From Petrosia ficiformis (lineage: Eukaryota > Porifera > Demospongiae > Haplosclerida > Petrosiidae), in the NCBI GenBank assembly GCA_947044365.1, contig OX345642.1, positions 7,518,776-7,582,775 on the forward strand: a DNA stretch of 64,000 bases, read 5' to 3'. Below, piece by piece: positions 27,461 to 61,423 of this stretch; position 1 is the first letter of the stretch; every line of letters begins with the position of its first letter. The translations under genes and the position numbers were made by a program. The notes beneath the pieces are model-generated. The model was not told where the DNA came from. It did no database searches and worked only from the letters and a program-made list of their open reading frames with translations.

Positions 27461-27879
27461 GGCTTGTAAAATTATGTGGTTATTTTTGAAGATGAGATTG
27501 TTATAATTAAAAATTGGTAAGGAAATGCTGATTAGGCTTCTTGTCTCAGAAATATCGATTGAACCCATATTACTGCACTTGTAATTCAAACTATGATAGT
27601 AACTTTAACACTTTCGTAACGCACTCTTAACACTATTATAATACAGTTTTTGCACATCTTTAACACATTTTTAACTCAATTTTAACTCATTGTGAATTCA
27701 ATTACAACACACTTTTAAACATAATTATTCTTAATGCATTGTTAAACCTTTCCTAACTCATTCCTAACAATTATATCGCAATTTCATTGTGATTATATTG
27801 TGTTTATGATGCGATTAAAATGCAAATTATAATGCTATTTAAAGCAATGTTAATGGCAGGGTAGTAAAACATCAAGTAT
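27461..27879. other. AT-rich non-genic spacer
   Basis: No gene is seen. From about 27600 irregular TTAACAC / TTTTAACTCA words recur at 10-20-bp spacing, possibly a decayed short repeat. Confidence 0.6.
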
Positions 27880-28659
27880 GGTGTTAGGGGGTGTGGCTTG
27901 GGGTCTAGGGTCAAGGGTGGTGTTAGGGGGTGTGGCTTGGGGTCTAGGGTCAAGGGTGGTGTTAGGGGGTGTGGCTTGGGGTCTAGGGTCAAGGGTGGTG
28001 TTAGGGGGTGTGGCTTGGGGTCTAGGGTCAAGGGTGGTGTTAGGGGGTGTGGCTTGGGGTCTAGGGTCAAGGGTGGTGTTAGGGGGTGTGGCTTGGGGTC
28101 TAGGGTCAAGGGTGGTGTTAGGGGGTGTGGCTTGGGGTCTAGGGTCAAGGGTGGTGTTAGGGGGTGTGGCTTGGGGTCTAGGGTCAAGGGTGGTGTTAGG
28201 GGGTGTGGCTTGGGGTCTAGGGTCAAGGGTGGTGTTAGGGGGTGTGGCTTGGGGTCTAGGGTCAAGGGTGGTGTTAGGGGGTGTGGCTTGGGGTCTAGGT
28301 CAAGGGTGGTGTTAGGGGGTGTGGCTTGGGGTCTAGGGTCAAGGGTGGTGTTAGGGGGTGTGGCTTGGGGTCTAGGGTCAAGGGTGGTGTTAGGGGGTGT
28401 GGCTTGGGGTCTAGGGTCAAGGGTGGTGTTAGGGGGTGTGGCTTGGGGTCTAGGGTCAAGGGTGGTGTTAGGGGGTGTGGCTTGGGGTCTAGGGTCAAGG
28501 GTGGTGTTAGGGGGTGTGGCTTGGGGTCTAGGGTCAAGGGTGGTGTTAGGGGGTGTGGCTTGGGGTCTAGGGTCAAGGGTGGTGTTAGGGGGTGTGGCTT
28601 GGGGTCTAGGGTCAAGGGTGGTGTTAGGGGGTGTGGCTTGGGGTCTAGGGTCAAGGGTG
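27880..28659. repeat. G-rich 39-bp minisatellite, about 20 copies
   Basis: The unit is GGTGTTAGGGGGTGTGGCTT followed by GGGGTCTAGGGTCAAGGGT, exactly 39 bp, nearly perfect through the array. One G is deleted near 28297, which shifts the frame. Each unit holds five or more G-runs of 3-5 plus TTAGGG and CTAGGG words. The 39-bp period is divisible by 3, so frames stay open on both strands (TLDPRPQATPPNT on minus, GLGSRVVLGGVAW on plus); no promoter or other coding sign supports translation. Confidence 0.95.
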
Positions 28660-28807
28660 GGGTTTAGGGACATAACATCTTCACGCAAAAAAATGGTCTT
28701 CACACACACAAAAACATTCTGTGACAGTGACAGTTAACTGAATGGAAAAGCTCACCCAAAACTAATAGGTGCATTCCTGGCTGAAAACTTGAGAAAATAA
28801 AAATTTG

Positions 28808-28940
28808 AATGACATCGCATCCTTCTTGACAACATCAAAAAGTGCATGATATGACTGGTGGGTTCTAAAGTGCAATGACATCGCATCCATCTTGTCAACA
28901 TCAAAAAGTGCAGGTACATGACTCATGGGTTCTAAGAAAG
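28808..28940 (+). repeat. 66-bp direct duplication in the leader of copy A
   Basis: AATGACATCGCATCCTTCTT at 28808 is repeated with few changes at 28874 (AATGACATCGCATCCATCTT); both halves end in GGGTTCTAA. The same pair is in copy B at 58700. It could be a paired recombinase-binding or promoter element. Confidence 0.85.
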
Positions 28941-29030
28941 CATGAGGTCAGAACAGTTCAACATAAATACAGGGGAAGGACAGAGCAGAGTGAGAGAGAA
29001 AAAAATGTGAAGAATACTGTGTGTGTGATA

Positions 29031-31507
29031 ATGTCTGACTTACCAGATGAACCCGTCGATGTTGTAGTCCACAAACAGATTTTCCAAGGCATAAGGAGAG
29101 ACGACATACACCTCATACCTTGTGGAGAGCTGATCAAAAGGTTCAAGTTGCTGGAACTATATGACAACAGTACCTTGAGTCGCAGGAGAATGAAGATGGG
29201 CATTGTCACATGCCTAGCACTGCCAGCAGAAATTTCAATTCTGAGAAAAGAAAAGATCATATCGTCAAGCACTAACAGGTGCGTACTGATGGACAAAAAC
29301 AGTGCAGAAAGATACATTGAAGCCATTCTCAAAAGCAGAGGGGTATCTGTTGACAGCTTGCAACAAAATGTAACGAAAGAACCCCTCCACACTGCTCCTG
29401 ATCACACAACAGAAAACATGGACACAACTGGTACTGATATTGAGCAGGCAGACATCGTATCCGAGGGCAATTCACTCCGGGAAGACCAAAGCCTTGCAGT
29501 TGAAGTCATTTCGGACTCAGAGACCGTCACACATTCGTCTCCCATCCAAAAACATCCACCAGGACCACACAGTGTGATCAGCGAAGACGACGGAAGTCAC
29601 ACTGCAATTAATGATATGGAAGTAGTGCCTTGGATTTCTGATGTAGAAACTTCAATTAAACAAGCATCTACAAAAGGCAGCACGAGAGGCCGCAAGGGTA
29701 CTCCTCCATTGCCCGAGGACCTCATGAAAGAGATCGAAGGACTGGACACTTTCTATGCAGCTCCTTTCAATCACGAGAGGAAAGGAAAGCCTCTGAGTAG
29801 TATAACGTTAAACAAAACCAAAGAACAGATACTCTGTGAGCTTTGAATTTTTTAAAGCATTTTTTAGAATTTTAGAAGCCTGTTGTATAACCCCCACATT
29901 AATATCCTTCTTTCTCTATTCCTTTCCAAAGATTTTTTTGAGTACTGCAAAAGAACGGAGGAAACTTTACAATTTGGCCTCGTTCTGGACAAAGCCTTGC
30001 TAGACAAATTCCTGCTATTCATGAGAGAGGAAAAAAACTCCACTCCGGGAACACTGTGTTGTTACTGTCAGGCACTCGTACGGGCAGTAAAATATGCCGA
30101 CAAAGGAGAGAAAACAACACAGTTACAAAATCTCCACAGGTACATCAGTGTATTCCAAAAGGAGGCAGAGCTCAACAGAGATAAGTCCTGGGAGGAACTA
30201 AAAGCCAAAGGACGTTGGCTATCGTGGTAAGTATTTGTTTGTTGTTTTTTTTTTTAGTCTGACAATCAGACTTCTGATGGGGCAATTCAGATACATGTGT
30301 TGTTATACAGCCATTCTGTTTTCGTGTAGGAAGGAAGTCTTGGAGGTCCTCGCACAGTTGAACGATGACTACAACTCGTCCACTGATTTGGAGAGGATCA
30401 AACTTTCCCGATCACTTCTTGTTGTGTTAGTGTACACGGCCATTCCTCCGGGACGTGGAAGGGAATACAGAGAATTGCACTTCAAGATTCACGAGAGTGA
30501 AATAACGGGACCTTACGAAAGCAGATTGCACAAAAACATTTTGCACTTTTCACCTTACGAGGGGAAGGCCATAATGTACATTACCGATCACAAGACAGGA
30601 CATTCAACTGGACCACAAATGATCTCTTGTCCTGATGACAGCTGCTTCATGAACGTCCTGTCAGACTACCTCTTACGCTATCGCAACAAGATACCAAACA
30701 GTTCGAAATCAACCCTTCTCTTTCTGGTGAGTTCCACGCACGTACATGTACATGTGTGACTGTCAACTATTTGTCTGATTTGTCGTGAATGACACTCGCC
30801 TTGTTTCTCTCTCTCTCTCTCTTTCTCTCTAGGATGATAACGGTGGATGCTATGATTCCAAGAATTGGACTAAATACATTCAATCAATATTCTACAAGTA
30901 CACGGGAGTTGGTGGAGTATCAATACATGCATTGCGATCGTCGTTTGTCACATTTGCCGGCAACGAATCGACGGAAGCAGTGATGGAAAGTATTGCCGTG
31001 GCAATGCGACACTCTAGAAGATATCAGCAGGACATCTACGACAAGAGGACCATCAACGAAAGAGTGAAACCAGGTGTCCACTTTGCTTCAAAACAAGTCC
31101 TGCAAGCACTACGTCGTCCACCGCCAGCCATAGATGTAACATCACCAAAGAAAATGTGCAAAAGCTTAGAGGATATCAGTGACGAGGACTCAGATGATCC
31201 AACAAGCTCAAATGTCGTCGTTCCCGGAGAAAGTGTTGCCATGATTGCCAACGATTCAACTGAGAGATGTCCAAAGTTAATTTTTGCAAAAGTCCTTGAG
31301 ATAAATGCCACAACAAAAACGGCACTATTAAACGAATTAGTGGAGACATTTCCCGGATACTATCGTCTCAAGATCGCTTCAAACAGGTGGGAAGAAAAAC
31401 TCTCTTGTTTGATTACAGGTATTGACTTGGTGTACTCACGTGAGCACAGGGCATATGAACTCAGGACTCCTCTTGACGATATCACCCAAATACAAACACT
31501 CCAGTGA
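29031..31507 (+). CDS. Tyrosine recombinase (Crypton-like), four exons, copy A
   Basis: Exons 29031-29835, 29932-30226, 30330-30726 and 30833-31507 join in frame across GT-AG introns to give 723 residues. A CT-rich tract precedes the last acceptor. Residues 1-268 are of unknown fold, acidic and Ser/Thr-rich late, with a basic KGSTRGRKG stretch. Residues 269-366 look like a SAM-like core-binding domain (FFEYCKRTEE, LLDKFLLFM, TLCCYCQALVRAVKYA). The catalytic domain has the box I arginine in PPGRGREYREL (409-414), Lys455 in DHKTG, H-x-x-R at 531-534 (HALR), His559 and Tyr568, exactly nine residues after His559 as in IYTH-type recombinases. This set cuts and rejoins DNA through a 3'-phosphotyrosine. 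The upstream ATG at 28875 is in frame but non-conserved in style; 29031 is preferred. Confidence 0.88.
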
Positions 31508-31526
31508 ACCTGCATTAAATGTAACA

Positions 31527-31664
31527 TATATATATATATATATATATATTAATGCTAAATAATTATTTTAATCTTGGTTTTCATATCATTATTATAACTA
31601 TGATCATAATAATTATTGACAATTAATTAATTATAATAAATATATATATTTAATAATTATATAT

Positions 31665-31700
<36 letters not shown>

Positions 31701-31733
31701 TATATGTATATAATATATATATATATATATATA

Positions 31734-31781
<48 letters not shown>

Positions 31782-31900
31782 TGTCATCACTATAACGATT
31801 ATTTTATTATCGTAATTATTGTATATATATATTATATATAATTATATTATATATAATTATATATATATATATATATAATTATTATAATTATCACATACCT
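31527..31900. repeat. AT dinucleotide tracts between the two element genes (copy A)
   Basis: Long TATATA runs interspersed with AATTATTATAATTA. They lie 3' of the recombinase stop. Lengths differ slightly between copies A and B, as expected of microsatellites. Similar runs fill the intron at 32157-32664. Confidence 0.95.
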
Positions 31901-32116
31901 CATTATTACTTACAACGATTCAGACAACCCGCGACGCTGGTTCTCTCCATTTACACTGGGTCTAAATTTCACTGAAGCTAGTGCTATTGTAGGGTTTCCC
32001 CTACAGACTACTCAGATTCAACTTCTGGATGAAGCAACTTTTAGCATAGAGCTCACGTGATGTGTTAAATCTAGGCCCAGCATTTCAATTAAACGTGGTG
32101 TAAATTTTTCTATGAC

Positions 32117-35100
32117 ATGGATACGAGCATGGAGAGCTTCAAGCGTGTCATTGAAGGTACATGTAAATGTGTATGATAAATGCTTCAATAGTTACTAGTT
32201 CATATGTGTATATATATATATATATATAATGTAATTGCATATAAAAAGTATATACATATATATATATATAATTATGGAGTACTCTATTTGTGTAGTACCA
32301 ACAGTGATGCATTTCTGTAGTATATATATATATTATATTATATATAATTATATATATATATATATATATAATTATAATTATATATATATATATAATTATA
32401 TATATTATGGAATACCTTTTCTAGCTACTAATTATATACATACATGTATACTATAATATAGAGTTTTGTATAAGATGCATTAATTACTATTTTAGCACCT
32501 GACAATCATTACCACTGCAACATGTATAATTATATATATATATATAACAGTTTCTCATAATACAGAGTGAAAATTATAGATAATTATTGTAGCTAAGTAA
32601 AATTGTATATCTCATGTCACAATTCATCATTCAGTTTTCATTTGTTATTCATTCTTTACCCCAGAATATCCACAACGAAATGCTTCTCAAATATTTCCAT
32701 TATTAATAAAGATTCTGGAATTATCGAGTACTCTACCGGTTGACCATGAATTCATGTGTCATCTTGTAGAAAATTTGTCTGCTAGTGTACAAGTATTAAG
32801 AGGTGAGCCTAACACTAGCAATGGAAGTAGAACTGGTACAAGTAGCTCCACCAGCATCATACCCTCTTCCGTGAGAAAGTCAATGCCTAGCTCTGTGCCT
32901 GTACCATCAAATTCTAGGTCTGCATTGTCTAACTCAGCATTACCTACGACTAGTCGTAGGAGAGCATGTGATGATGGGGAAGAGGGTTCTAGTGGGCATT
33001 CTAATCGGCCAAAGCGTCGTAGAATGAGAAGTGATGCCATTTCAAATGCTGGTGGACAGTCTACACGTACCACTAGGTCTGTTGACAGTGACATTTGTGC
33101 AATTAAGAATGTCACCATTCCATCTACATGGAAACCCGAATGTCCAGAAAAAAAGGGACATCTTTTGATAAGGGTGACAGAATGTGCTTCTGAAAACTCT
33201 GATATTCCAGGAGCTGTTGGAATTAAACACGACCTTCCAGCTGTGACTAACCCGACAAACGTCACTGCTGTTAGGGAAGAATTGGATAAGCTATACAATG
33301 CTGCTTCATCCAAAGTGGTTCGGTATTCTATGCTAAAAAATCAGTGTGACGTACAATGTTACTATGGCATAGGTAGAGTCATGAATGAGTTGATAAACAA
33401 GTCTGCACATCTACACAGTTTTATCAACAGGGCTAAATACGGAGAATCATATCAACCACACCCTACAGACCCCAATTTATTACAGTTGTGCAGTAAGCCA
33501 ACAACTGTAGTAAGTATTGCAGAGGGTGACGTTAGCATTCTCGATAAGCTGGCAGGACACTGCATGAAACGCAGGAAAACAGATGTACTGAGTTCACTGG
33601 GCGGGTGTGTAACACCTGACTGTCAACTCTGTCCCACGCTGAAGCGTAGATGGGAACAAACTGGTGTACTTCGGTACCACACCGAAGAGACATGCCAGTC
33701 TGGTAATGTAGCCATGTGTGCGGCATCAATGAAGTACAAGAACACTAGCAAGTCTTCGCTTCATGAATGTCTATTATTTGCTCGATTGTGTCCTCCCAAC
33801 ACCAAGCTTGCCAAAGGTGTTTGTGGTATTCCAGCTAGTGTCGTTGTAAAAGATCTGGTAGATCTGTGCAGGCTTGGGACACAGAGTGACCGAATGTACC
33901 TGTGTCGTGATATGGACTTTGTAATAAACGGTGGAAATGATGCTCTCAGTGCCATCCATTTTGTGGATGGGGACTCAGGGTTTATTGTGACAGACAAATT
34001 TGCAGATCTGCAAAAGTATAGCCAATATGGCAGTGCAGTGCATTTCACAAATGGTGTTTCTGAAACATGGATTCCATTTCGTGAAGCATTTCACGATGCT
34101 GTTGAAATATCCCATAAATTTGTGGTGTCAGAGCATCCTTCATGTAGGCACCCAATTAGTCATGACCTCGGCAGCGTAGGACACTGGAGTGCAATGGCTA
34201 CACTCCACTCAGCTAAAAAGGTGTACGTACATGTAGTGGACGACAAAAGCATTCATCTACCTGACGGTCGTCTCATTGTTACAATCATTGTCCAAAGAGA
34301 GAATGATCTGTGGGAGCCTTTAGCCTTGCAGGTTATCAGAAATGGTGTGTCCTTCTTGACAGAAGAAGGACGCAAGGAAGCACCAAGTGAGTACAAAGTT
34401 GCTGAGGTGTTTGCAGAAAAAAATGGGAAAGGCTTGTATGCCATTCCAAAACACCTCCTCGAGTTTACTGATGAGCCTTTAAATGACAAGAAACAAATAG
34501 AAATGTGTAAGTTTACCCAATGCCTAAAAGCAAATCATGCTACAAAATGTAGATTTGCTGACTGTATGCCATGGAAACTTCGTAGTTTACATTTGGATTT
34601 TAATCAGAAACAACTGATTGTCTGTCATAATAGCCAGCAGTTGCATGTGACTAGATCTAAAGCCAACATTCACCAGTCCATGGTGTTTGTGGCTGAAAGT
34701 ACCATTCCTAATGCAGGATGTGGTCTTTTCTTAAGACCACATAGTACTGAAATGTACTTCAGAGCTAGGGATACTCTCTGCTTGTACAGCAGAGAGACCC
34801 TGACAGAAGAGCAGATTCAAAATATTTCCAATCCAGATTACATACTAGAAGTACGTGACTCAATGTTTGTAGATGCAAGTGTGTTTCATGGGTGGAATTT
34901 GGGTCGGTTTGTTAATCAAGGTGGTTTACTTGAAGGGCTTAAACAGTTAGCAACTGACTTTGCCCTGGGACATTTTCACCTTGATTCTGCTGAGAAAGTT
35001 GCTGAAAGTTTTTGCAATGTTATTTATTCACAGAAGGGAAACACAGTTGTGATAAATGTGAAGGACAAAGTCCTCCATTGTAACACTAACAACACTGCAA

Positions 35101-35333
35101 AAGAGCTTTTTGTTAACTATGGTCTGGATAATTACTGGGTGAAATGTATATCAGAGAGAGACAGTGCTTCAATGGATCCGGAGAGTAGAGACGAATTGTC
35201 TCAGCTTGTGAGATTCATTGTTGCCACTAATAAACGTAGTGGTCATTTGCAGCTTAACCACACTTATAGTGATGCTCAGGTAGAACAACTTGTTGATATA
35301 TGTCCAAGTGTCTGCCCTGTGCAATGTACATGA
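32117..35333 (+). CDS. SET-like domain protein of the element, two exons, copy A
   Basis: A short exon 32117-32156 joins 32665-35333 in frame over a 508-bp AT-rich GT-AG intron, giving 902 residues. Features: Ser/Thr-rich region about 60-120, a nuclear-localisation-like RPKRRRMR at 128-135, a Cys cluster near 327-336, then a C-terminal SET-like fold. SET landmarks are NAGCGLF (698-702), a Y-S-R-E turn near 722, NLGRFVNQ (about 758-764) in place of the usual RFINHS, and ELFVNYG plus YW (827-838). SET enzymes methylate lysines using S-adenosylmethionine. The usual N-H-S triplet is altered, so activity is uncertain. A stretch around 475-495 (HWSAMATLHSAKKVYVHVV) faintly recalls an OTU domain, without a clear catalytic Cys. 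It is intact in both copies as far as visible. Confidence 0.8.
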
Positions 35334-35338
35334 ATTCA

Positions 35339-35592
35339 CTCCCAGACCAATTCATACTGGTCATATGCTTATAGAAGCACGGTATTGTGCATACCTGTTT
35401 CACGCTTTCAATTTGTTTCCAAACAGGAAACATGATCCCTGTCCCATCTGGTGACAGTGGATTATCTCCCAGACCAATTCATACTGGTCATATGCTTATA
35501 GAAGCACGGTATTGTGCATACCTGTTTCACGCTTTCAATTTGTTTCCAAACAGGAAACATGATCCCTGTCCCATCTGGTGACAGTGGATTAT
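35339..35592 (+). repeat. Two exact 127-bp direct repeats after the SET-like gene
   Basis: CTCCCAGACCAATTCATACT begins at 35339 and again at 35466; the units are essentially identical. Each contains small inverted repeats: GTTTCC/GGAAAC, GGTAT/ATACC and CTGTC/GACAG. The second unit ends 9 bp before the ribozyme-like sequence. This could be an element terminus or a recombinase site pair. Confidence 0.9.
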
Positions 35593-35678: not shown

Positions 35679-36863
35679 GAAGATTTCTAAAAGAAATATA
35701 GTCAAAAACAGTTAGTTAATCTACATGTAGACTTGAAAATTATGTTCACTCTACTTACATACAATTGTAGACACACAGATGTCACAGCAAGGTTGTACGT
35801 CAGAGCTGAAGGACTGTGTGGAGCTCAGATGAAGAAAGAGTTTATCAAGTGTCATATGATCCAGGCTGTTAACAATTATTATAACTTTATTTTTTGTTCT
35901 ACACAAAACAACAATTGTACTTACATATCGATAAGGTATGCATCATAATTAATGGAGTAATGTAATTAAGAAATGTTATTTTAATTTTGTACTTCATTTA
36001 GTCATTTAAATGTTTGTAAGCTAATCATAATTATGGATTGTATCTTGTTTGTAAAGACACTATTTTTGAGTGATAAACATCTAGTATAGTGACATATCCA
36101 ATAAATGTTTTAACCAATTCTACATTTAAGTGGGAATTATGAGATGATAACATATCAAATAATCAATCAAGCTACATAGGCATGTTTAATGGGTTGAGAT
36201 GTGAATGTCTGAACACACTCTGAGTGAGCAAATGCTATTAACAACATTTTACATATGTTGAATGTAATATTACATTAAAACAGGAAGAAATGGGTGTAAC
36301 TAAAAATCCATCCGCTGTAGCTAAAACGAATCTGAACACAACAACTCAATTAACAATACTGAAAGTTGTGTCGGCTCTGTAGTTTTCTATCTGTTGCAAT
36401 GTTAATCAGTCTGTTGTACAAAACTGTAGGCGTTCACATGAGCTCCACCCTAACTTGCAACACATACATGTAAATACATACTTTCCATCAATGCCATACT
36501 AATCACAATACAAAACTATTACCCACAGAATTAGATAGAAAAAAATAGCTAGAATGGTTAGTAGAGCTATTTGGAGGTGGCTTCCTGTATCAAAACCCCA
36601 ATGATTGCAGCAAAAACCCATAAGGACATATGTCCCTTGATTTTTCCATGTTTACATTGCCATTTTTGATCACTGGGGTGCCAGGTTGATGTTTGTGGAA
36701 TACATATATGCAATGCATTCTACCATTTATCTATTTTTGAAATTAAAGAAAGAGACATATTTCAGGGACATAGATTCTATATAGATGTTACAATACACAT
36801 ATAGGGCAAGGGCAGCCACTCCCCTCTTTCAGACAGTTTTGGCGGGCTGATGGATATTGAAAT
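35679..36863. other. Non-coding AT-rich stretch after the ribozyme
   Basis: A possible exon lies at about 35770-35850 after the acceptor-like ACAATTGTAG (peptide TDVTARLYVRAEGLCGAQMK), with no recognised family and no matching donor. Otherwise nothing is seen: no RT, no repeat of note. If the ribozyme marks the 5' end of a retroelement, this is its body and it is non-autonomous. Confidence 0.5.
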
Positions 36864-36864
36864 T

Positions 36865-37965
36865 GCCTTGTTTAAACCCTCTGATCTCCTATCTGGAAGA
36901 TCTTTCAGGGTTAATGTAACCAGTTTAACTGGTTGTAACCAACCTCACCTGAGGTTGTAAAGGCAATACAGACAACGGCAGGTCTCTTACACTCACTGGT
37001 CTTGACTGACCTTACAGAGTGAAAGCAATCTCTTGATGAGATTGTAGAGACAATTGTGGTAGATCTATTGTCCCTTTATGCTCTTTGATATTTGTCATTC
37101 AGAGCAACAGCAACCATTTTAGGTTGTAAGGGACATTGTTATGGTGGTGCAGGTCAGCCATTTTGAAGTTCTTGGTATTTACAACCACCAGTGTAATAGT
37201 AGATATGTCAAGGATTGGAGTTCATCTTGGTAAGTTTTGAATAAAGTGAGGGGGATGTACTGTATGTTGTGAGAACATTTGATTGTAATCTACGTAATTG
37301 CCTTGTTTAAACCCTCTGATCTCAAGATCTTTCAGGGTTAATGTAACCAGTTTAACTGGTTGTAACATACCTCATCTGAGGTTGTAAAGGCAATACAGAG
37401 CACAGCAGGTCTCTTACACTCACTGGTCTTGATTGACCTTACAGAGTGAAAGCAATCTCTTGATGAGAATTGTAGAGGCATTGTTCCTTTATGCTCTTTG
37501 ATATTTGTCATTCAGAGCAACAGCAACCATTTTAGATTGTAAGGGACATTGTTTTGGTGGTGCATGTCAGCCATTTTAAAGTTCTTGTTTCAGTAAGTCA
37601 CATGTTTACCCACTGTAATAGGAGCTGTAATAGATATGTCAAAGAATGAAGTTCATTTTGGATAATTCTACTTAAAGTGAGGGTGATGTACTGTATGTTG
37701 TGAGAACATTTGATTATAAGCCACGTAATTGCCTTGTTTAAACCCTCTGATCTCAAGATCTTTCAGGGTTAATGTAACCAGTTTAACTGGTTGTAACATA
37801 CCTCATCTGAGGTTGTAAAGGCAATACAGAGCACAGCAGGTCTCTTACACTCACTGGTCTTGATTGACCTTACAGAGTGAAAACAATCTCTCGATGGGGA
37901 TTGTAGAGACAATTGTGGTATTGTCCCTTTAATATCTGTCATTTAGAGCGACAGTATGTTTTTTA
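36865..37965. repeat. Three tandem ~430-bp repeats with conserved hairpins
   Basis: GCCTTGTTTAAACCCTCTGA begins units at 36865, 37300 and 37731. Each has the perfect inverted repeat AACCAGTT-T-AACTGGTT (first at 36918-36934), then CCTCA..TGAGG, and later CATTCAGAGCAACAG and AGCCATTTT. The third unit is shorter. No reading frame is conserved. Confidence 0.9.
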
Positions 37966-38657: not shown

Positions 38658-38985
38658 GTTATGGAATGTAATGTGTCAATTGATGGCAGACAACACTTGA
38701 TTCATATATTACGTGAAAATCTATGTGTTAATGTCCCCTGAGGAAACTTCACTTAACACATTATCATGTACAGAAATGGGATAGCAAAATCAATAATCCA
38801 CAAACTAGACCGGGAGGGTATCAGAAACCAATAATCAATTTTATATACATACTGTGTGTATGTTGGGTAATGGTATAATTTGAGCATTAACATGATAATT
38901 TTTATAAGTATTAATTATATTATAATATTATGTAATCATTACTATTCTATACTTGTCTTCTTTTTTTTGACCATTTACGGGGTCT
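38658..38985 (+). repeat. Left inverted arm
   Basis: Starts GTTATGGAATGTAATGTGTC and ends GACCATTTACGG. It matches the reverse complement of 41945-42265 in order, including AACACATTATCATGTACAGA, GGAGGGTATCAGAAACCAAT and ATGTTGGGTAATGGTAT, with small indels. Confidence 0.85.
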
Positions 38986-41087: not shown

Positions 41088-41384
41088 ATGGCAGAAAAAG
41101 AATTACCTCAAGAAATCATAGAATTAATGAAGGAGAAGTGGAAGGAAATGAGTGATAAAGATATTAAAGAACCAGAAGCAAAAAAGCAGAGAACTGAAAC
41201 AAAGCACAGAGAAGGTACCTGTAAGAACTGCAGTTGCTATAGATGTTGCCACCACGTATGGATCTGTGGGAAATGTAAATTAGAAAAAGAAAGATTTCAT
41301 GTATGGCTAAACCAAGACAGACAAGAGAGAGAGAGGAGAGAGAGAGCAAGAGGTGGAGGTAGGAAAGGAGAGAAAAAAGACTAA
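41088..41384 (+). CDS. Small Cys/His-rich basic protein (98 residues), right gene of the inverted unit
   Basis: A single open frame from ATG 41088 to TAA 41382-41384. The N-terminal third is charged and helical (LPQEIIELMKEKWKEMSDKD). Residues about 45-65 hold CKNCSCYRCCHHVWICGKC, a dense Cys/His cluster able to bind zinc. The tail is very basic (RQERERRERARGGGRKGEKK). This is compatible with a small nucleic-acid-binding protein, but the family is not recognised. TATA box and short leader support transcription. It faces the right inverted arm, opposite to the related-looking gene at 39839. Confidence 0.6.
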   Translation: MAEKELPQEIIELMKEKWKEMSDKDIKEPEAKKQRTETKHREGTCKNCSCYRCCHHVWICGKCKLEKERFHVWLNQDRQERERRERARGGGRKGEKKD

Positions 41385-41944: not shown

Positions 41945-42265
41945 CCGTAAATGGTCGAAGAAGAGAAAACAACTTAGAATAATAATGTTTACATATAATA
42001 TAATTAATATTTTTCTAACTTAGTAATAAAAATTATCATGTTAATGATACCATTACCCAACATACATACAGTATGTATGTAAAACTGATTATTGGTTTCT
42101 GATACCCTCCCAATCTGGTTTGTGGATTTTTGACTTTGCTATCCCATTTCTGTACATGATAATGTGTTAACTGAAGTTTCCTGAGGTGAGATTAACACAT
42201 AGATTATCACATATTGTATGAATCAAGTGTTGTTCTCCTTCAATTAACACATTAAATTCCATAAC
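41945..42265 (-). repeat. Right inverted arm
   Basis: The reverse complement partner of 38658-38985. It ends CCATAAC at 42265, directly joined to ACAGGACACAAGG, the phase at which the 438-bp satellite begins. Confidence 0.85.
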
Positions 42266-43020
42266 AGGACACAAGGTTACGTGGCAATGGCTGGGCTTCA
42301 ATAGGAACTATATGCAAACACAACGGGAATGCACACAGTTCACACATTTATGTATATATGAATACCAAGTTGTCCGTCCATGGTTAAGTGGGGATGGCTG
42401 GGCTTTAATAGGAACTATATGCACACAGTTAAGCAGTATAATAATACATGTAAATTATAACAAAGTACACATGTAAACAGCTGATCCTTACCCTTGTTCC
42501 CTTGTTCTTGGCAATAAGAAAGAATGAAGGCTCTATAAACCTTCCATTATCCTTAAGCAAGACTGATAGATAGACAGCTAGATAGAGAGATAGATAGATA
42601 GATAGATAGAGGAACGTCAAATAAATGAATGAATAAGAATTATTATTGCATGTGACATCAATCACATCCAGATGATTATTACAAACTACACATATAACAG
42701 GACACAAGGTTACGTGGCAATGGCTGGGCTTCAATAGGAACTATATGCAAACACAACGGGAATGCACACAGTTCACACATTTATGTATATATGAATACCA
42801 AGTTGTCCGTCCATGGTTAAGTGGGGATGGCTGGGCTTTAATAGGAACTATATGCACACAGTTAAGCAGTATAATAATACATGTAAATTATAAGAAAGTA
42901 CACATGCAAACAGCTGATCCTTACCCTTGTTCCCTTGTTCTTGGCAATAAGAAAGAATGAAGGCTCTAGAAACCTTCCATTATCCTTAAGCAAGACTGAT
43001 AGATAGACAGCTAGATAGAG

Positions 43021-43059
<39 letters not shown>

Positions 43060-43469
43060 GGAACGTCAAATAAATGAATGAATAAGAATTATTATTGCAT
43101 GTGACATCAATCACATCCAGATGATTATTACAAACTACACATATAACAGGACACAAGGTTACGTGGCAATGGCTGGGCTTCAATAGGAACTATATGCAAA
43201 CACAACGGGAATGCACACAGTTCACACATTTATGTATATATGAATACCAAGTTGTCCGTCCATGGTTAAGTGGGGATGGCTGGGCTTTAATAGGAACTAT
43301 ATGCACACAGTTAAGCAGTATAATAATACATGTAAATTATAACAAAGTACACATGCAAACAGCTGATCCTTACCCTTGTTCCCTTGTTCTTGGCAATAAG
43401 AAAGAATGAAGGCTCTATAAACCTTCCATTATCCTTAAGCAAGACTGATAGATAGACAGCTAGATAGAG

Positions 43470-43508
<39 letters not shown>

Positions 43509-43911
43509 GGAACGTCAAATAAATGAATGAATAAGAATTATTATTGCATGTGACATCAATCACATCCAGATGATTATTACAAACTACACATATAACAGGA
43601 CACAAGGTTACGTGGCAATGGCTGGGCTTCAATAGGAACTATATGCAAACACAACGGGAATGCACACAGTTCACACATTTATGTATATATGAATACCAAG
43701 TTGTCCGTCCATGGTTAAGTGGGGATGGCTGGGCTTTAATAGGAACTATATGCACACAGTTAAGCAGTATAATAATACATGTAAATTATAACAAAGTACA
43801 CATGCAAACAGCTGATCCTTACCCTTGTTCCCTTGTTCTTGGCAATAAGAAAGAATGAAGGCTCTATAAATTATCCTTAAGCAAGACTGATAGATAGACA
43901 GCTAGATAGAG

Positions 43912-43946
<35 letters not shown>

Positions 43947-44356
43947 GGAACGTCAAATAAATGAATGAATAAGAATTATTATTGCATGTGACATCAATCA
44001 CATCCAGATGATTATTACAAACTACACATATAACAGGACACAAGGTTACGTGGCAATGGCTGGGCTTCAATAGGAACTATATGCAAACACAACGGGAATG
44101 CACACAGTTCACACATTTATGTATATATGAATACCAAGTTGTCCGTCCATGGTTAAGTGGGGATGGCTGGGCTTTAATAGGAACTATATGCACACAGTTA
44201 AGCAGTATAATAATACATGTAAATTATAACAAAGTACACATGCAAACAGCTGATCCTTACCCTTGTTCCCTTGTTCTTGGCAATAAGAAAGAATGAAGGC
44301 TCTATAAACCTTCCATTATCCTTAAGCAAGACTGATAGATAGACAGCTAGATAGAG

Positions 44357-44395
<39 letters not shown>

Positions 44396-44798
44396 GGAAC
44401 GTCAAATAAATGAATGAATAAGAATTATTATTGCATGTGACATCAATCACATCCAGATGATTATTACAAACTACACATATAACAGGACACAAGGTTACGT
44501 GGCAATGGCTGGGCTTCAATAGGAACTATATGCAAACACAACGGGAATGCACACAGTTCACACATTTATGTATATATGAATACCAAGTTGTCCGTCCATG
44601 GTTAAGTGGGGATGGCTGGGCTTTAATAGGAACTATATGCACACAGTTAAGCAGTATAATAATACATGTAAATTATAACAAAGTACACATGCAAACAGCT
44701 GATCCTTACCCTTGTTCCCTTGTTCTTGGCAATAAGAAAGAATGAAGGCTCTATAAATTATCCTTAAGCAAGACTGATAGATAGACAGCTAGATAGAG

Positions 44799-44833
<35 letters not shown>

Positions 44834-45236
44834 GGAACGTCAAATAAATGAATGAATAAGAATTATTATTGCATGTGACATCAATCACATCCAGATGATT
44901 ATTACAAACTACACATATAACAGGACACAAGGTTACGTGGCAATGGCTGGGCTTCAATAGGAACTATATGCAAACACAACGGGAATGCACACAGTTCACA
45001 CATTTATGTATATATGAATACCAAGTTGTCCGTCCATGGTTAAGTGGGGATGGCTGGGCTTTAATAGGAACTATATGCACACAGTTAAGCAGTATAATAA
45101 TACATGTAAATTATAACAAAGTACACATGCAAACAGCTGATCCTTACCCTTGTTCCCTTGTTCTTGGCAATAAGAAAGAATGAAGGCTCTATAAATTATC
45201 CTTAAGCAAGACTGATAGATAGACAGCTAGATAGAG

Positions 45237-45271
<35 letters not shown>

Positions 45272-45681
45272 GGAACGTCAAATAAATGAATGAATAAGAA
45301 TTATTATTGCATGTGACATCAATCACATCCAGATGATTATTACAAACTACACATATAACAGGACACAAGGTTACGTGGCAATGGCTGGGCTTCAATAGGA
45401 ACTATATGCAAACACAACGGGAATGCACACAGTTCACACATTTATGTATATATGAATACCAAGTTGTCCGTCCATGGTTAAGTGGGGATGGCTGGGCTTT
45501 AATAGGAACTATATGCACACAGTTAAGCAGTATAATAATACATGTAAATTATAACAAAGTACACATGCAAACAGCTGATCCTTACCCTTGTTCCCTTGTT
45601 CTTGGCAATAAGAAAGAATGAAGGCTCTATAAACCTTCCATTATCCTTAAGCAAGACTGATAGATAGACAGCTAGATAGAG

Positions 45682-45720
<39 letters not shown>

Positions 45721-46123
45721 GGAACGTCAAATAAATGAATGAATAAGAATTATTATTGCATGTGACATCAATCACATCCAGATGATTATTACAAACTACA
45801 CATATAACAGGACACAAGGTTACGTGGCAATGGCTGGGCTTCAATAGGAACTATATGCAAACACAACGGGAATGCACACAGTTCACACATTTATGTATAT
45901 ATGAATACCAAGTTGTCCGTCCATGGTTAAGTGGGGATGGCTGGGCTTTAATAGGAACTATATGCACACAGTTAAGCAGTATAATAATACATGTAAATTA
46001 TAACAAAGTACACATGCAAACAGCTGATCCTTACCCTTGTTCCCTTGTTCTTGGCAATAAGAAAGAATGAAGGCTCTATAAATTATCCTTAAGCAAGACT
46101 GATAGATAGACAGCTAGATAGAG

Positions 46124-46158
<35 letters not shown>

Positions 46159-46561
46159 GGAACGTCAAATAAATGAATGAATAAGAATTATTATTGCATG
46201 TGACATCAATCACATCCAGATGATTATTACAAACTACACATATAACAGGACACAAGGTTACGTGGCAATGGCTGGGCTTCAATAGGAACTATATGCAAAC
46301 ACAACGGGAATGCACACAGTTCACACATTTATGTATATATGAATACCAAGTTGTCCGTCCATGGTTAAGTGGGGATGGCTGGGCTTTAATAGGAACTATA
46401 TGCACACAGTTAAGCAGTATAATAATACATGTAAATTATAACAAAGTACACATGCAAACAGCTGATCCTTACCCTTGTTCCCTTGTTCTTGGCAATAAGA
46501 AAGAATGAAGGCTCTATAAATTATCCTTAAGCAAGACTGATAGATAGACAGCTAGATAGAG

Positions 46562-46596
<35 letters not shown>

Positions 46597-46999
46597 GGAA
46601 CGTCAAATAAATGAATGAATAAGAATTATTATTGCATGTGACATCAATCACATCCAGATGATTATTACAAACTACACATATAACAGGACACAAGGTTACG
46701 TGGCAATGGCTGGGCTTCAATAGGAACTATATGCAAACACAACGGGAATGCACACAGTTCACACATTTATGTATATATGAATACCAAGTTGTCCGTCCAT
46801 GGTTAAGTGGGGATGGCTGGGCTTTAATAGGAACTATATGCACACAGTTAAGCAGTATAATAATACATGTAAATTATAACAAAGTACACATGCAAACAGC
46901 TGATCCTTACCCTTGTTCCCTTGTTCTTGGCAATAAGAAAGAATGAAGGCTCTATAAATTATCCTTAAGCAAGACTGATAGATAGACAGCTAGATAGAG

Positions 47000-47034
<35 letters not shown>

Positions 47035-47437
47035 GGAACGTCAAATAAATGAATGAATAAGAATTATTATTGCATGTGACATCAATCACATCCAGATGAT
47101 TATTACAAACTACACATATAACAGGACACAAGGTTACGTGGCAATGGCTGGGCTTCAATAGGAACTATATGCAAACACAACGGGAATGCACACAGTTCAC
47201 ACATTTATGTATATATGAATACCAAGTTGTCCGTCCATGGTTAAGTGGGGATGGCTGGGCTTTAATAGGAACTATATGCACACAGTTAAGCAGTATAATA
47301 ATACATGTAAATTATAACAAAGTACACATGCAAACAGCTGATCCTTACCCTTGTTCCCTTGTTCTTGGCAATAAGAAAGAATGAAGGCTCTATAAATTAT
47401 CCTTAAGCAAGACTGATAGATAGACAGCTAGATAGAG

Positions 47438-47476
<39 letters not shown>

Positions 47477-47879
47477 GGAACGTCAAATAAATGAATGAAT
47501 AAGAATTATTATTGCATGTGACATCAATCACATCCAGATGATTATTACAAACTACACATATAACAGGACACAAGGTTACGTGGCAATGGCTGGGCTTCAA
47601 TAGGAACTATATGCAAACACAACGGGAATGCACACAGTTCACACATTTATGTATATATGAATACCAAGTTGTCCGTCCATGGTTAAGTGGGGATGGCTGG
47701 GCTTTAATAGGAACTATATGCACACAGTTAAGCAGTATAATAATACATGTAAATTATAACAAAGTACACATGCAAACAGCTGATCCTTACCCTTGTTCCC
47801 TTGTTCTTGGCAATAAGAAAGAATGAAGGCTCTATAAATTATCCTTAAGCAAGACTGATAGATAGACAGCTAGATAGAG

Positions 47880-47914
<35 letters not shown>

Positions 47915-48306
47915 GGAACGTCAAATAAATGAATGAATAAGAATTATTATTGCATGTGACATCAATCACATCCAGATGATTATTACAAACTACACATATA
48001 ACAGGACACAAGGTTACGTGGCAATGGCTGGGCTTCAATAGGAACTATATGCAAACACAACGGGAATGCACACAGTTCACACATTTATGTACAAGTTGTC
48101 CGTCCATGGTTAAGTGGGGATGGCTGGGCTTTAATAGGAACTATATGCACACAGTTAAGCAGTATAATAATACATGTAAATTATAACAAAGTACACATGC
48201 AAACAGCTGATCCTTACCCTTGTTCCCTTGTTCTTGGCAATAAGAAAGAATGAAGGCTCTATAAATTATCCTTAAGCAAGACTGATAGATAGACAGCTAG
48301 ATAGAG

Positions 48307-48341
<35 letters not shown>

Positions 48342-48750
48342 GGAACGTCAAATAAATGAATGAATAAGAATTATTATTGCATGTGACATCAATCACATCC
48401 AGATGATTATTACAAACTACACATATAACAGGACACAAGGTTACGTGGCAATGGCTGGGCTTCAATAGGAACTATATGCAAACACAACGGGAATGCACAC
48501 AGTTCACACATTTATGTATATATGAATACCAAGTTGTCCGTCCATGGTTAAGTGGGGATGGCTGGGCTTTAATAGGAACTATATGCACACAGTTAAGCAG
48601 TATAATAATACATGTAAATTATAACAAAGTACACATGCAAACAGCTGATCCTTACCCTTGTTCCCTTGTTCTTGGCAATAAGAAAGAATGAAGGCTCTAT
48701 AACCTTCCATTATCCTTAAGCAAGACTGATAGATAGACAGCTAGATAGAG

Positions 48751-48789
<39 letters not shown>

Positions 48790-49192
48790 GGAACGTCAAA
48801 TAAATGAATGAATAAGAATTATTATTGCATGTGACATCAATCACATCCAGATGATTATTACAAACTACACATATAACAGGACACAAGGTTACGTGGCAAT
48901 GGCTGGGCTTCAATAGGAACTATATGCAAACACAACGGGAATGCACACAGTTCACACATTTATGTATATATGAATACCAAGTTGTCCGTCCATGGTTAAG
49001 TGGGGATGGCTGGGCTTTAATAGGAACTATATGCACACAGTTAAGCAGTATAATAATACATGTAAATTATAACAAAGTACACATGCAAACAGCTGATCCT
49101 TACCCTTGTTCCCTTGTTCTTGGCAATAAGAAAGAATGAAGGCTCTATAAATTATCCTTAAGCAAGACTGATAGATAGACAGCTAGATAGAG

Positions 49193-49227
<35 letters not shown>

Positions 49228-49631
49228 GGAACGTCAAATAAATGAATGAATAAGAATTATTATTGCATGTGACATCAATCACATCCAGATGATTATTACA
49301 AACTACACATATAACAGGACACAAGGTTACGTGGCAATGGCTGGGCTTCAATAGGAACTATATGCAAACACAACGGGAATGCACACAGTTCACACATTTA
49401 TGTATATATGAATACCAAGTTGTCCCGTCCATGGTTAAGTGGGGATGGCTGGGCTTTAATAGGAACTATATGCACACAGTTAAGCAGTATAATAATACAT
49501 GTAAATTATAACAAAGTACACATGCAAACAGCTGATCCTTACCCTTGTTCCCTTGTTCTTGGCAATAAGAAAGAATGAAGGCTCTATAAATTATCCTTAA
49601 GCAAGACTGATAGATAGACAGCTAGATAGAG

Positions 49632-49662
<31 letters not shown>

Positions 49663-50505
49663 GGAACGTCAAATAAATGAATGAATAAGAATTATTATTG
49701 CATGTGACATCAATCACATCCAGATGATTATTACAAACTACACATATAACAGGACACAAGGTTACGTGGCAATGGCTGGGCTTCAATAGGAACTATATGC
49801 AAACACAACGGGAATGCACACAGTTCACACATTTATGTATATATGAATACCAAGTTGTCCGTCCATGGTTAAGTGGGGATGGCTGGGCTTTAATAGGAAC
49901 TATATGCACACAGTTAAGCAGTATAATAATACATGTAAATTATAACAAAGTACACATGTAAACAGCTGATCCTTACCCTTGTTCCCTTGTTCTTGGCAAT
50001 AAGAAAGAATGAAGGCTCTATAAACCTTCCATTATCCTTAAGCAAGACTGATAGATAGACAGCTAGATAGAGAGATAGATAGATAGATAGATAGAGGAAC
50101 GTCAAATAAATGAATGAATAAGAATTATTATTGCATGTGACATCAATCACATCCAGATGATTATTACAAACTACACATATAACAGGACACAAGGTTACGT
50201 GGCAATGGCTGGGCTTCAATAGGAACTATATGCAAACACAACGGGAATGCACACAGTTCACACATTTATGTATATATGAATACCAAGTTGTCCGTCCATG
50301 GTTAAGTGGGGATGGCTGGGCTTTAATAGGAACTATATGCACACAGTTAAGCAGTATAATAATACATGTAAATTATAAGAAAGTACACATGCAAACAGCT
50401 GATCCTTACCCTTGTTCCCTTGTTCTTGGCAATAAGAAAGAATGAAGGCTCTAGAAACCTTCCATTATCCTTAAGCAAGACTGATAGATAGACAGCTAGA
50501 TAGAG

Positions 50506-50544
<39 letters not shown>

Positions 50545-50954
50545 GGAACGTCAAATAAATGAATGAATAAGAATTATTATTGCATGTGACATCAATCACA
50601 TCCAGATGATTATTACAAACTACACATATAACAGGACACAAGGTTACGTGGCAATGGCTGGGCTTCAATAGGAACTATATGCAAACACAACGGGAATGCA
50701 CACAGTTCACACATTTATGTATATATGAATACCAAGTTGTCCGTCCATGGTTAAGTGGGGATGGCTGGGCTTTAATAGGAACTATATGCACACAGTTAAG
50801 CAGTATAATAATACATGTAAATTATAACAAAGTACACATGCAAACAGCTGATCCTTACCCTTGTTCCCTTGTTCTTGGCAATAAGAAAGAATGAAGGCTC
50901 TATAAACCTTCCATTATCCTTAAGCAAGACTGATAGATAGACAGCTAGATAGAG

Positions 50955-50993
<39 letters not shown>

Positions 50994-51396
50994 GGAACGT
51001 CAAATAAATGAATGAATAAGAATTATTATTGCATGTGACATCAATCACATCCAGATGATTATTACAAACTACACATATAACAGGACACAAGGTTACGTGG
51101 CAATGGCTGGGCTTCAATAGGAACTATATGCAAACACAACGGGAATGCACACAGTTCACACATTTATGTATATATGAATACCAAGTTGTCCGTCCATGGT
51201 TAAGTGGGGATGGCTGGGCTTTAATAGGAACTATATGCACACAGTTAAGCAGTATAATAATACATGTAAATTATAACAAAGTACACATGCAAACAGCTGA
51301 TCCTTACCCTTGTTCCCTTGTTCTTGGCAATAAGAAAGAATGAAGGCTCTATAAATTATCCTTAAGCAAGACTGATAGATAGACAGCTAGATAGAG

Positions 51397-51431
<35 letters not shown>

Positions 51432-51841
51432 GGAACGTCAAATAAATGAATGAATAAGAATTATTATTGCATGTGACATCAATCACATCCAGATGATTAT
51501 TACAAACTACACATATAACAGGACACAAGGTTACGTGGCAATGGCTGGGCTTCAATAGGAACTATATGCAAACACAACGGGAATGCACACAGTTCACACA
51601 TTTATGTATATATGAATACCAAGTTGTCCGTCCATGGTTAAGTGGGGATGGCTGGGCTTTAATAGGAACTATATGCACACAGTTAAGCAGTATAATAATA
51701 CATGTAAATTATAACAAAGTACACATGCAAACAGCTGATCCTTACCCTTGTTCCCTTGTTCTTGGCAATAAGAAAGAATGAAGGCTCTATAAACCTTCCA
51801 TTATCCTTAAGCAAGACTGATAGATAGACAGCTAGATAGAG

Positions 51842-51880
<39 letters not shown>

Positions 51881-52283
51881 GGAACGTCAAATAAATGAAT
51901 GAATAAGAATTATTATTGCATGTGACATCAATCACATCCAGATGATTATTACAAACTACACATATAACAGGACACAAGGTTACGTGGCAATGGCTGGGCT
52001 TCAATAGGAACTATATGCAAACACAACGGGAATGCACACAGTTCACACATTTATGTATATATGAATACCAAGTTGTCCGTCCATGGTTAAGTGGGGATGG
52101 CTGGGCTTTAATAGGAACTATATGCACACAGTTAAGCAGTATAATAATACATGTAAATTATAACAAAGTACACATGCAAACAGCTGATCCTTACCCTTGT
52201 TCCCTTGTTCTTGGCAATAAGAAAGAATGAAGGCTCTATAAATTATCCTTAAGCAAGACTGATAGATAGACAGCTAGATAGAG

Positions 52284-52318
<35 letters not shown>

Positions 52319-52728
52319 GGAACGTCAAATAAATGAATGAATAAGAATTATTATTGCATGTGACATCAATCACATCCAGATGATTATTACAAACTACACA
52401 TATAACAGGACACAAGGTTACGTGGCAATGGCTGGGCTTCAATAGGAACTATATGCAAACACAACGGGAATGCACACAGTTCACACATTTATGTATATAT
52501 GAATACCAAGTTGTCCGTCCATGGTTAAGTGGGGATGGCTGGGCTTTAATAGGAACTATATGCACACAGTTAAGCAGTATAATAATACATGTAAATTATA
52601 AGAAAGTACACATGCAAACAGCTGATCCTTACCCTTGTTCCCTTGTTCTTGGCAATAAGAAAGAATGAAGGCTCTAGAAACCTTCCATTATCCTTAAGCA
52701 AGACTGATAGATAGACAGCTAGATAGAG

Positions 52729-52767
<39 letters not shown>

Positions 52768-53177
52768 GGAACGTCAAATAAATGAATGAATAAGAATTAT
52801 TATTGCATGTGACATCAATCACATCCAGATGATTATTACAAACTACACATATAACAGGACACAAGGTTACGTGGCAATGGCTGGGCTTCAATAGGAACTA
52901 TATGCAAACACAACGGGAATGCACACAGTTCACACATTTATGTATATATGAATACCAAGTTGTCCGTCCATGGTTAAGTGGGGATGGCTGGGCTTTAATA
53001 GGAACTATATGCACACAGTTAAGCAGTATAATAATACATGTAAATTATAACAAAGTACACATGCAAACAGCTGATCCTTACCCTTGTTCCCTTGTTCTTG
53101 GCAATAAGAAAGAATGAAGGCTCTATAAACCTTCCATTATCCTTAAGCAAGACTGATAGATAGACAGCTAGATAGAG

Positions 53178-53216
<39 letters not shown>

Positions 53217-53619: not shown

Positions 53620-53654
<35 letters not shown>

Positions 53655-54064: not shown

Positions 54065-54103
<39 letters not shown>

Positions 54104-54506: not shown

Positions 54507-54541
<35 letters not shown>

Positions 54542-54944: not shown

Positions 54945-54979
<35 letters not shown>

Positions 54980-55382: not shown

Positions 55383-55417
<35 letters not shown>

Positions 55418-55820: not shown

Positions 55821-55855
<35 letters not shown>

Positions 55856-56258: not shown

Positions 56259-56293
<35 letters not shown>

Positions 56294-56696: not shown

Positions 56697-56731
<35 letters not shown>

Positions 56732-57138: not shown

Positions 57139-57177
<39 letters not shown>

Positions 57178-61403: not shown

Positions 61404-61423
61404 ACCTGCATTAAATGTAACAT

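What the first reader, a model, noticed from the sequence alone, without database searches (positions are those of the whole stretch)
28670..35592. Composite mobile element pairing a tyrosine recombinase with a SET-like protein
Two collinear copies with different upstream flanks each carry a spliced four-exon tyrosine recombinase with all six catalytic residues and a spliced two-exon 902-residue protein with SET landmarks. No RT, DDE transposase or terminal inverted repeat is visible. Cryptons are the closest known class, but I know of no Crypton family that encodes a SET methyltransferase partner. A chromatin-modifying cargo could protect, silence or direct the element.
Basis: partly seen in the sequence, partly recalled or inferred. 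Interest (0 to 1): 0.88.

Follow-up and report, generated by a model that had tools for sequence, protein, structure and literature searches.

The report
Jumping elements at sponge chromosome ends
The ends of a sponge's chromosomes carry stacked, mobile-looking DNA elements that sit exactly inside the telomere repeats and encode a recombinase, which in one family appears joined to a SET domain of the kind found in histone methyltransferases.

Summary
All 32 left ends found genome-wide directly follow a TTTAGGG telomere repeat, lie within 71 kb of a contig end and point outwards. Right ends also meet TTTAGGG; one contig ends element, then 1.86 kb of TTTAGGG. All 28 copies whose contig reaches the partner gene carry it beside the tyrosine recombinase (YR). 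The SET reading of that 902-aa partner is NOT confirmed: no profile match, and shuffles score as well. But neighbouring telomeric elements ("family B", 26 near-identical copies, ~8.2 kb spacing) hold a canonical SET domain (62.7 bits) in line with a zinc-finger YR homologous to family A's; an eight-exon model joins them in one frame, and both parts are under purifying selection. Two predicted B-type joints show inverted arms around a telomeric 7-bp core. Best reading: Crypton-like YR transposons that integrate into telomere repeats, one family with a SET-YR fusion. My searches listed no precedent for that fusion. Mobility, splicing and methyltransferase activity are inferred.

The parts
27872..28662 (+). 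upstream flank of copy 1: telomere-like 39-bp minisatellite (about 20.5 units)
28663..28669 (+). single TTTAGGG unit directly before the left end
28670..28695 (+). left end of family A element 1 (ACATAACATCTTCACGC...)
   Evidence: 32 of 32 left ends found genome-wide follow TTTAGGG
29031..31507 (+). YR gene, exons 29031-29835, 29932-30226, 30330-30726, 30833-31507, 723 aa
   Evidence: XerC/XerD models E 0.0028 and 0.0064, below curated cut-offs; landmarks
32117..35333 (+). partner gene ('SET-like', not confirmed), exons 32117-32156 and 32665-35333, 902 aa
35339..35593 (+). 127-bp unit twice in tandem (three units in L004 and L005, by eye)
36861..37954 (+). stretch with ~430-bp repeats; contig-end copies carry more units
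38658..38880 (+). left arm of a 223-nt, 90% inverted repeat (other arm 42043-42265)
42043..42265 (-). right arm of that inverted repeat
41088..41384 (+). small Cys-rich ORF (98 aa), function unknown, no family match above cut-off
42261..57375 (+). 438/449-bp satellite array inside the element, about 34 units
58420..58497 (+). right end of element 1, with degenerate telomere-like GGTTTATTTGGGTTTATTT, ending GTCGGTTGCATG
   Evidence: 8 exact right ends genome-wide
58498..58561 (+). TTTAGGG array between element 1 and element 2
58562..64000 (+). family A element 2 (runs on past the window; YR from 58923)

Best explanation
Family A and the neighbouring family B are DNA transposons mobilised by a tyrosine recombinase whose target is the host telomere repeat. 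Proposed cycle: (1) the element is excised or copied as a circle whose joint is right end + one telomere repeat + left end; (2) the recombinase exchanges strands within that repeat and the same bases in a telomere array; (3) the element ends up between two blocks of TTTAGGG, its orientation fixed because the core is asymmetric; (4) telomerase extends the distal array and later insertions stack outwards, building the subtelomere, while exchange between chromosome ends keeps copies alike. In family B the recombinase is joined to a SET domain, which most likely marks or binds chromatin so that the recombinase is brought to, or the new copy kept quiet in, telomeric heterochromatin. In family A a separate 902-aa protein travels with the recombinase and may do an analogous job. 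Shown here: exact ends, telomeric position, orientation, stacking, intact frames, a SET-YR gene model (splice signals chosen by eye, one open frame), purifying selection in B. Inferred: circles, catalysis, splicing in vivo, methylation, the role of SET.
For: Left ends: the 32 found with no TTTAGGG in the query are the same 32 found with TTTAGGG + end. They lie at most 70,966 bp from the contig end (median 12 kb), on 26 chromosome ends, all outward. Right ends: 8 exact and 3 with 1-2 mismatches before TTTAGGG (TTTAGGG was part of that query). C8 reads right end - 1,859 bp of TTTAGGG (99.8%) - contig end; a C16 tandem pair shares exactly one TTTAGGG (L029); a diverged interior joint at C1:59.82 Mb reads GTTGCATG-TTTAGGG-ACATAACA (L026). 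The 21 fetched copies have at least three kinds of neighbour before the repeat tract. YR: sub-threshold XerC/XerD and core-binding matches; YR-A against YR-B2 28% over 159 aa, 45.1 bits, best of 2,000 shuffles of B2 30.4 (388 shuffles gave any match). Family B: SET 62.7 bits, cut-off 22.4; eight-exon open gene model; SET followed by YR on the same strand in B1, B2, B3 and C1 relics; pS 0.79-0.92 against pN 0.24-0.32. Joints of B1 and subfamily C: 10/12 and 9/12 inverted arms around TAGGGTT, reached by 6 and 44 of 5,000 shuffles.
Against: No movement was observed and no read data were available. Recombinase models match only below their curated cut-offs, no PDB sequence matched, and YR-A scores against B1 (30.8 bits) and B3 (31.6) hardly exceed the best B2 shuffle (30.4). 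Joints of A, A' and D show no significant inverted arms (3,873, 3,425 and 4,237 of 5,000 shuffles as good). Copies L002-L021 differ by only 0-11 mismatches, and 12 of 21 have nearly the same B1 right end before them, so part of the spread may be exchange between ends. The proximal TTTAGGG tract is 7-77 bp against 1,859 bp distal on C8, not what a random insertion point predicts. TTTAGGG arrays also exist in chromosome interiors (C1:40.4 Mb, C7:2.27 Mb, list cut short), and none of the 32 left ends is there. Two of 24 matches to the B right end (C14:2.59 Mb, C18:4.54 Mb, 2 mismatches each) are away from contig ends. Family B1 and B2 YRs have T where the H of H-x-x-R is expected.
Confidence: 0.72

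Rival explanations
1. Y'-like subtelomeric repeats: the blocks are passive and spread between chromosome ends by homologous recombination or break-induced copying in the TTTAGGG tracts; the YR is a passenger.
For: All 32 left ends are terminal and co-oriented; L002-L021 differ by 0-11 mismatches over ~7 kb; 12 of 21 have nearly the same B1 right end before them, with variable TTTAGGG numbers; element length varies 13-54 kb.
Against: Recombination alone does not readily explain two recombinase families with exact, phase-fixed ends in the same repeat, purifying selection on SET and YR exons of B, different neighbours at one identical end, or the single-repeat joints at C16 and in the C1 interior.
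Confidence: 0.17
2. Remnants of an endogenous large DNA virus that uses a telomere-specific YR, like the crustacean majaniviruses and pemoniviruses.
For: Those viruses insert in (TAACC/GGTTA)n and majanivirus YRs typically have a C2H2 zinc-binding domain (PMC10871703, passages); family B has a C2H2-like finger before the YR (by eye; zf-C2H2 match only E 0.55).
Against: The family A copy in the window is half satellite with two long genes and no further ORF over 124 aa; no relative of YR-B in viral contigs or phage records. Nimavirus YR sequences themselves were not compared.
Confidence: 0.06
3. Elements tamed by the host to maintain or protect chromosome ends (as HeT-A/TART do in Drosophila; recalled).
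For: 26 chromosome ends carry family A; the 21 copies aligned are intact and alike.
Against: A telomerase-domain exon is present (26.8 bits, cut-off 25), a long TTTAGGG cap follows the element on C8, family A was not found at every chromosome end, and degenerate relics exist in the interior.
Confidence: 0.05

Closest known systems
Cryptons (CryptonA of animals, PMC3212892; CryptonV with microsatellite targets, per PMC8869645; passages read)
   Same: YR DNA transposons without RT; animal Cryptons without terminal repeats; some CryptonV families are target-specific
   Different: No DUF3504 or Phage_integrase match above cut-off here; telomere target; 8-54 kb; introns; a partner gene, or a SET domain in line with the YR. 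'SET domain' has 0 hits in PMC3212892
Telomere-inserting endogenous nimaviruses (majanivirus, pemonivirus; PMC10871703, passages read)
   Same: YR plus insertion into the host telomere repeat; zinc-binding domain on the YR
   Different: Whole virus genomes (300-360 kb in pemoniviruses); no SET fusion in the passages read
Telomere-targeted retroelements (TRAS1 and Magnaporthe elements in titles cited by PMC8869645; rotifer Terminons in PMC6431247, passages read)
   Same: Occupy telomere repeats; Terminons form tandem arrays
   Different: They use reverse transcriptase; none was found here
Y' elements of yeast (recalled)
   Same: Subtelomeric, co-oriented, between telomere tracts, near-identical
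   Different: Y' encodes a helicase and no recombinase (recalled)

Membership tests
Crypton | encodes a YR with R-H-R-Y catalytic residues | tested here: met
   Family A: R, K, H-x-x-R, H, Y with H to Y spacing of 9. Family B1 and B2 have T in place of the first H
Crypton | no reverse transcriptase or DDE transposase | tested here: met
   window copy only: besides the two genes no ORF over 124 aa in 35400-58500; 11 of the 14 ORFs of 70 aa or more listed in 35254-42740 scanned with Pfam, no RT or transposase match. An intron-broken gene could be missed
Crypton | animal Crypton YR related to DUF3504 | tested here: not met
   no DUF3504 match listed at E up to 10 for YR-A and YR-B1
Crypton | YR groups with Cryptons in a tree | not testable with these tools
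   no Crypton sequences at hand
SET domain protein (family A, 902 aa) | profile match to SET | tested here: not met
   no PF00856 match listed at E up to 10; hhalign E 0.19; 255 of 2,000 shuffles score as high
SET domain protein (family A, 902 aa) | SET fold | tested here: inconclusive
   models at pLDDT 35 and 46; Foldseek 0 matches at E 0.001 or better
SET domain protein (family B) | profile match over Pfam cut-off, N-H-S and Y motifs | tested here: met
   B1 62.7, B2 63.8, B3 55.2 bits, cut-off 22.4; NHS reads NHG in B3
Telomere-specific element | both ends at host telomere repeats | tested here: met
Endogenous nimavirus | viral core genes | tested here: inconclusive
   no long ORF beyond the two genes in the window copy; no search with nimavirus core-gene models was made
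YR site-specific element | inverted arms around a 6-8 bp core shared with target | tested here: inconclusive
   B1 and subfamily C yes; A, A' and D no

The most novel reading that the evidence does not exclude
A class of telomere-colonising transposons whose recombinase carries its own histone methyltransferase: the SET domain writes or reads a telomeric chromatin mark, so the element both finds chromosome ends and silences itself there, and successive insertions have come to build the subtelomeres of this sponge. If YR insertion can also lengthen or re-cap short ends, it would be a recombinase-based back-up to telomerase.
Probability: 0.3. Interest if true: 0.94.

Novelty: new variant of a known kind. 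Interest (0 to 1): 0.86.

Why it matters
In what I read, YR insertion into telomere repeats is described only for crustacean viruses (PMC10871703). Two compact, related YR families in a sponge that share this target, one with SET and recombinase in line in one gene model, would link target choice and chromatin marking in a single testable protein. They also show what at least 26 of this animal's 36 chromosome ends are made of, and offer a natural recombinase for a telomere-type site.

Tried and rejected
Rejected: 35592 as the right end. Rejected as proof of SET in family A: eye-read motifs. AF2 alone and with five sequences gave poor models, and the Foldseek list is noise. YR-A found no homolog at E 0.001 (the 7,997 best candidates were scored). 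The 902-aa protein has few relatives: 6 and 9, both counting the window's own; sources are given only as ena, except one eukprot entry, Em1207g2a, which I recall as Ephydatia muelleri style. YR-B has no relative in viral contigs or phages. The SET gene at C7:2.27 Mb beside interstitial TTTAGGG looks like an ordinary host SET gene (by eye; 98 bits). Inverted arms for family A: not significant. Weak Ski_Sno_DHD and similar matches on YR-A are below cut-off. Excess amino-acid change in the 902-aa protein (19 non-synonymous, 1 synonymous, window copy against L002, p 0.048, picked after seeing it; 54.5 against 10.5 for C1:35.73 Mb, p 0.21) is only a hint.

Searches for prior print: (one search was to name the host). 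No SET-YR fusion or sponge telomere YR element showed in the listed titles and abstract starts; listings were cut in some (15 of 1,331 papers; 12 of 27). Papers: passages found by word of PMC3212892, PMC10871703, PMC13236599, PMC10680173, PMC12648040, PMC8869645, PMC6431247; all others as listings only.
Full report
WHERE. The window is G000:C7:7518776-7582775, 4.4 kb short of the contig end at 7587133. Contig lengths C1 63.28, C2 16.0, C3 11.43, C4 9.94, C5 8.53, C6 8.19, C7 7.59, C8 7.09 Mb equal Table 3 of the Petrosia ficiformis genome note (odPetFici3.1, 18 chromosomes; PMC12648040, passages). The host is therefore almost certainly that sponge; no record named it. Its telomere unit appears to be TTTAGGG: contig C8 ends in 1,859 bp of it.

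THE BLOCK. A DNA search returned 21 scored copies, 98-100% identical (21 of 748 first-look candidates were scored). A search with 27 bases of the left end, allowing 3 mismatches, found 32, and one with TTTAGGG plus left end found the same 32: every left end found follows a TTTAGGG. They lie on 26 chromosome ends, at most 70,966 bp from the contig end, and all 32 point outwards. In the 21 fetched copies the perfect TTTAGGG units before the end number 1-7 (tract 7-77 bp). What lies before the tract differs: a family-B type right end in 13 (12 of them nearly the same B1 end, and the variant L017), a further B-type variant by eye in L015, the 39-bp minisatellite in 5 (L001, L004, L006, L016, L021), and the right end of another family-A element in 2 (L007, L019).

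THE OTHER END. GTGAGTCGGTTGCATG before TTTAGGG is found 8 times exactly and 3 times with 1-2 mismatches (the query held TTTAGGG, so its presence there is not an independent test). Pairing left with right ends gives eight complete elements. Seven were computed at 13.3, 22.1, 22.6, 25.6, 29.8, 37.1 and 54.5 kb; the eighth, C16:5364280 to about 5386420, is about 22 kb. Only the window's element (28670-58497) was read through; the others could hold nested insertions. Half of the window's element is a 438/449-bp satellite. C16 has a tandem pair sharing exactly one TTTAGGG, and the C1 interior (59.82 Mb) has a diverged right end, one TTTAGGG and a diverged left end ACATAACAG: what a circle or a head-to-tail insertion would leave.

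GENES OF FAMILY A. The YR gene has four exons and the partner two; both are open in all 21 copies aligned. By protein search the YR first exon is at all 32 places. The partner is at 28: 26 full length, 2 cut by the contig end, one of these with a frame break. The other four copies (C2 right, C5 right, second C11 right, third C16 right) run off the contig before the gene's main exon would begin (left ends, contig lengths). Interior pieces of both genes lie together on C1 near 24.85, 25.69 and 26.22 Mb; an intact partner gene (94% identical) at C1:35.73 Mb and pieces near 28.4, 29.7 and 30.97 Mb have no YR match (62 of 105 YR candidates were scored). So the two genes nearly always, not always, go together.

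IS IT A YR? The evidence converges but is not strong: XerC 0.0028 and XerD 0.0064 over the catalytic domain, XerA 0.046 and MrpR_N_CB 0.0013 over the core-binding part, all below curated cut-offs; R, K, R, H and Y conserved in A, B1 and B2; Phage_integrase 0.018 for B3, below cut-off; no PDB sequence match; no homolog of YR-A in the protein collection.

IS IT SET? For family A this is not shown. The landmarks are in SET order, but Pfam gives nothing, a profile of six SET stretches gives -0.1 bits with 255 of 2,000 shuffles at least as high, and hhalign aligns the same landmarks at E 0.19. A very diverged SET domain remains possible.

FAMILY B. A PF00856 search led to the flanking telomeric elements. 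26 SET exons at 63.3-63.7 bits sit near contig ends, about 8.2 kb apart where tandem (7.7-8.4 kb); 7 of them compared base by base with B1 differ by 0-1. The same 26 places carry the YR ORF (25 full length, 99-100% identical, no stops; one partial at C3), all pointing inwards. In L043 I chose seven GT-AG introns by eye; they join small exons, the SET exon, a short exon and the zinc-finger-YR exon into one open frame from an ATG. No transcript was seen. SET 62.7 bits. Diverged relatives keep SET before YR on one strand: B2 on C16 (53% YR identity), B3 on C4, and C1 sites at 0.67, 1.20, 1.44, 29.25, 29.46 and 62.98 Mb, the C1 ones broken. Other SET matches on C1, such as 62.85 Mb, have no YR match listed. 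Synonymous sites are near saturation (pS 0.79-0.92) while pN is 0.24-0.32 (six SET pairs, one of the four sequences a relic, and one YR pair), so the protein has been kept by selection. YR-A and YR-B2 are homologous by 45.1 bits against at most 30.4 in shuffles; B1 and B3 give 30.8 and 31.6. B1 length is inferred from spacing: one unit's right end and the next unit's left end were read.

JOINTS. Right end of B1 plus the left end of the next B1 gives TTCTCAGGTATA-TAGGGTT-TAGCCCTGAGAA; subfamily C (L044, both ends of one element) gives TGGTCAGGTCTC-TAGGGTT-TAGGCCTGACTA. Both centre on the same 7-bp telomere permutation (6 and 44 of 5,000 shuffles as good), and CTCAGG/CCTGAG against GTCAGG/CCTGAC is a matched change (by eye). 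A, A' and D show no significant arms.

MECHANISM AND VERDICT. Site-specific integration of a circular form into telomere repeats explains the exact ends, fixed phase, fixed orientation and mixed neighbours; exchange between chromosome ends probably adds copies and keeps them alike. The short proximal tracts suggest insertion near the base of telomeres, insertion when telomeres are short, or later trimming; I cannot decide. A telomerase-domain exon is present (E 6.5e-4, 26.8 bits), so the elements are probably not the only end maintenance. The SET domain's role is inference: tethering or self-silencing in telomeric chromatin is likeliest.

NOVELTY. Target-specific YR transposons (CryptonV, PMC8869645) and telomere-specific YR viruses (PMC10871703) exist. 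A compact telomere-specific YR transposon family in a sponge, and a SET-YR fusion, did not show in the listings of nine searches of the held library. Repbase and most subscription papers were not searchable.

Noticed in passing
C1:35734118-35736781 (L052): Intact solo copy of the 902-aa partner gene's main exon in the chromosome interior, 94% identical, no YR match listed nearby; possibly host-retained.
   Followed up: partly
window 32665-35330 against L002: The partner protein changes fast: 19 non-synonymous and 1 synonymous difference between two recent copies; a hint of positive selection or conflict.
   Followed up: partly
L044, L045, L047, L048, L049: Further telomeric element types with left ends TTTAGG|CCTGAC and TTTAGG|CCTTCAT or CCTTCTA, with many GGGACATATGTCCC palindromes; the one in L044 is about 3.7 kb, perhaps non-autonomous.
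   Followed up: no
C1 first and last ~2 Mb, and 24-31 Mb: Many family-A and family-B relics lie inside the 63 Mb chromosome 1, hinting that it holds old chromosome ends, for example after fusions.
   Followed up: no
window 12448-26354 and 27872-28669: Long C-rich array of 62-bp and related tandem repeats, then a G-rich 39-bp telomere-like minisatellite just before the element.
   Followed up: no
L051:3082-4068 (-): A 329-aa ORF opposite the SET-YR exons in the third B subfamily; no family match above cut-off.
   Followed up: partly
window 41088-41384: Small Cys-rich ORF inside family A, between the partner gene and the satellite.
   Followed up: partly
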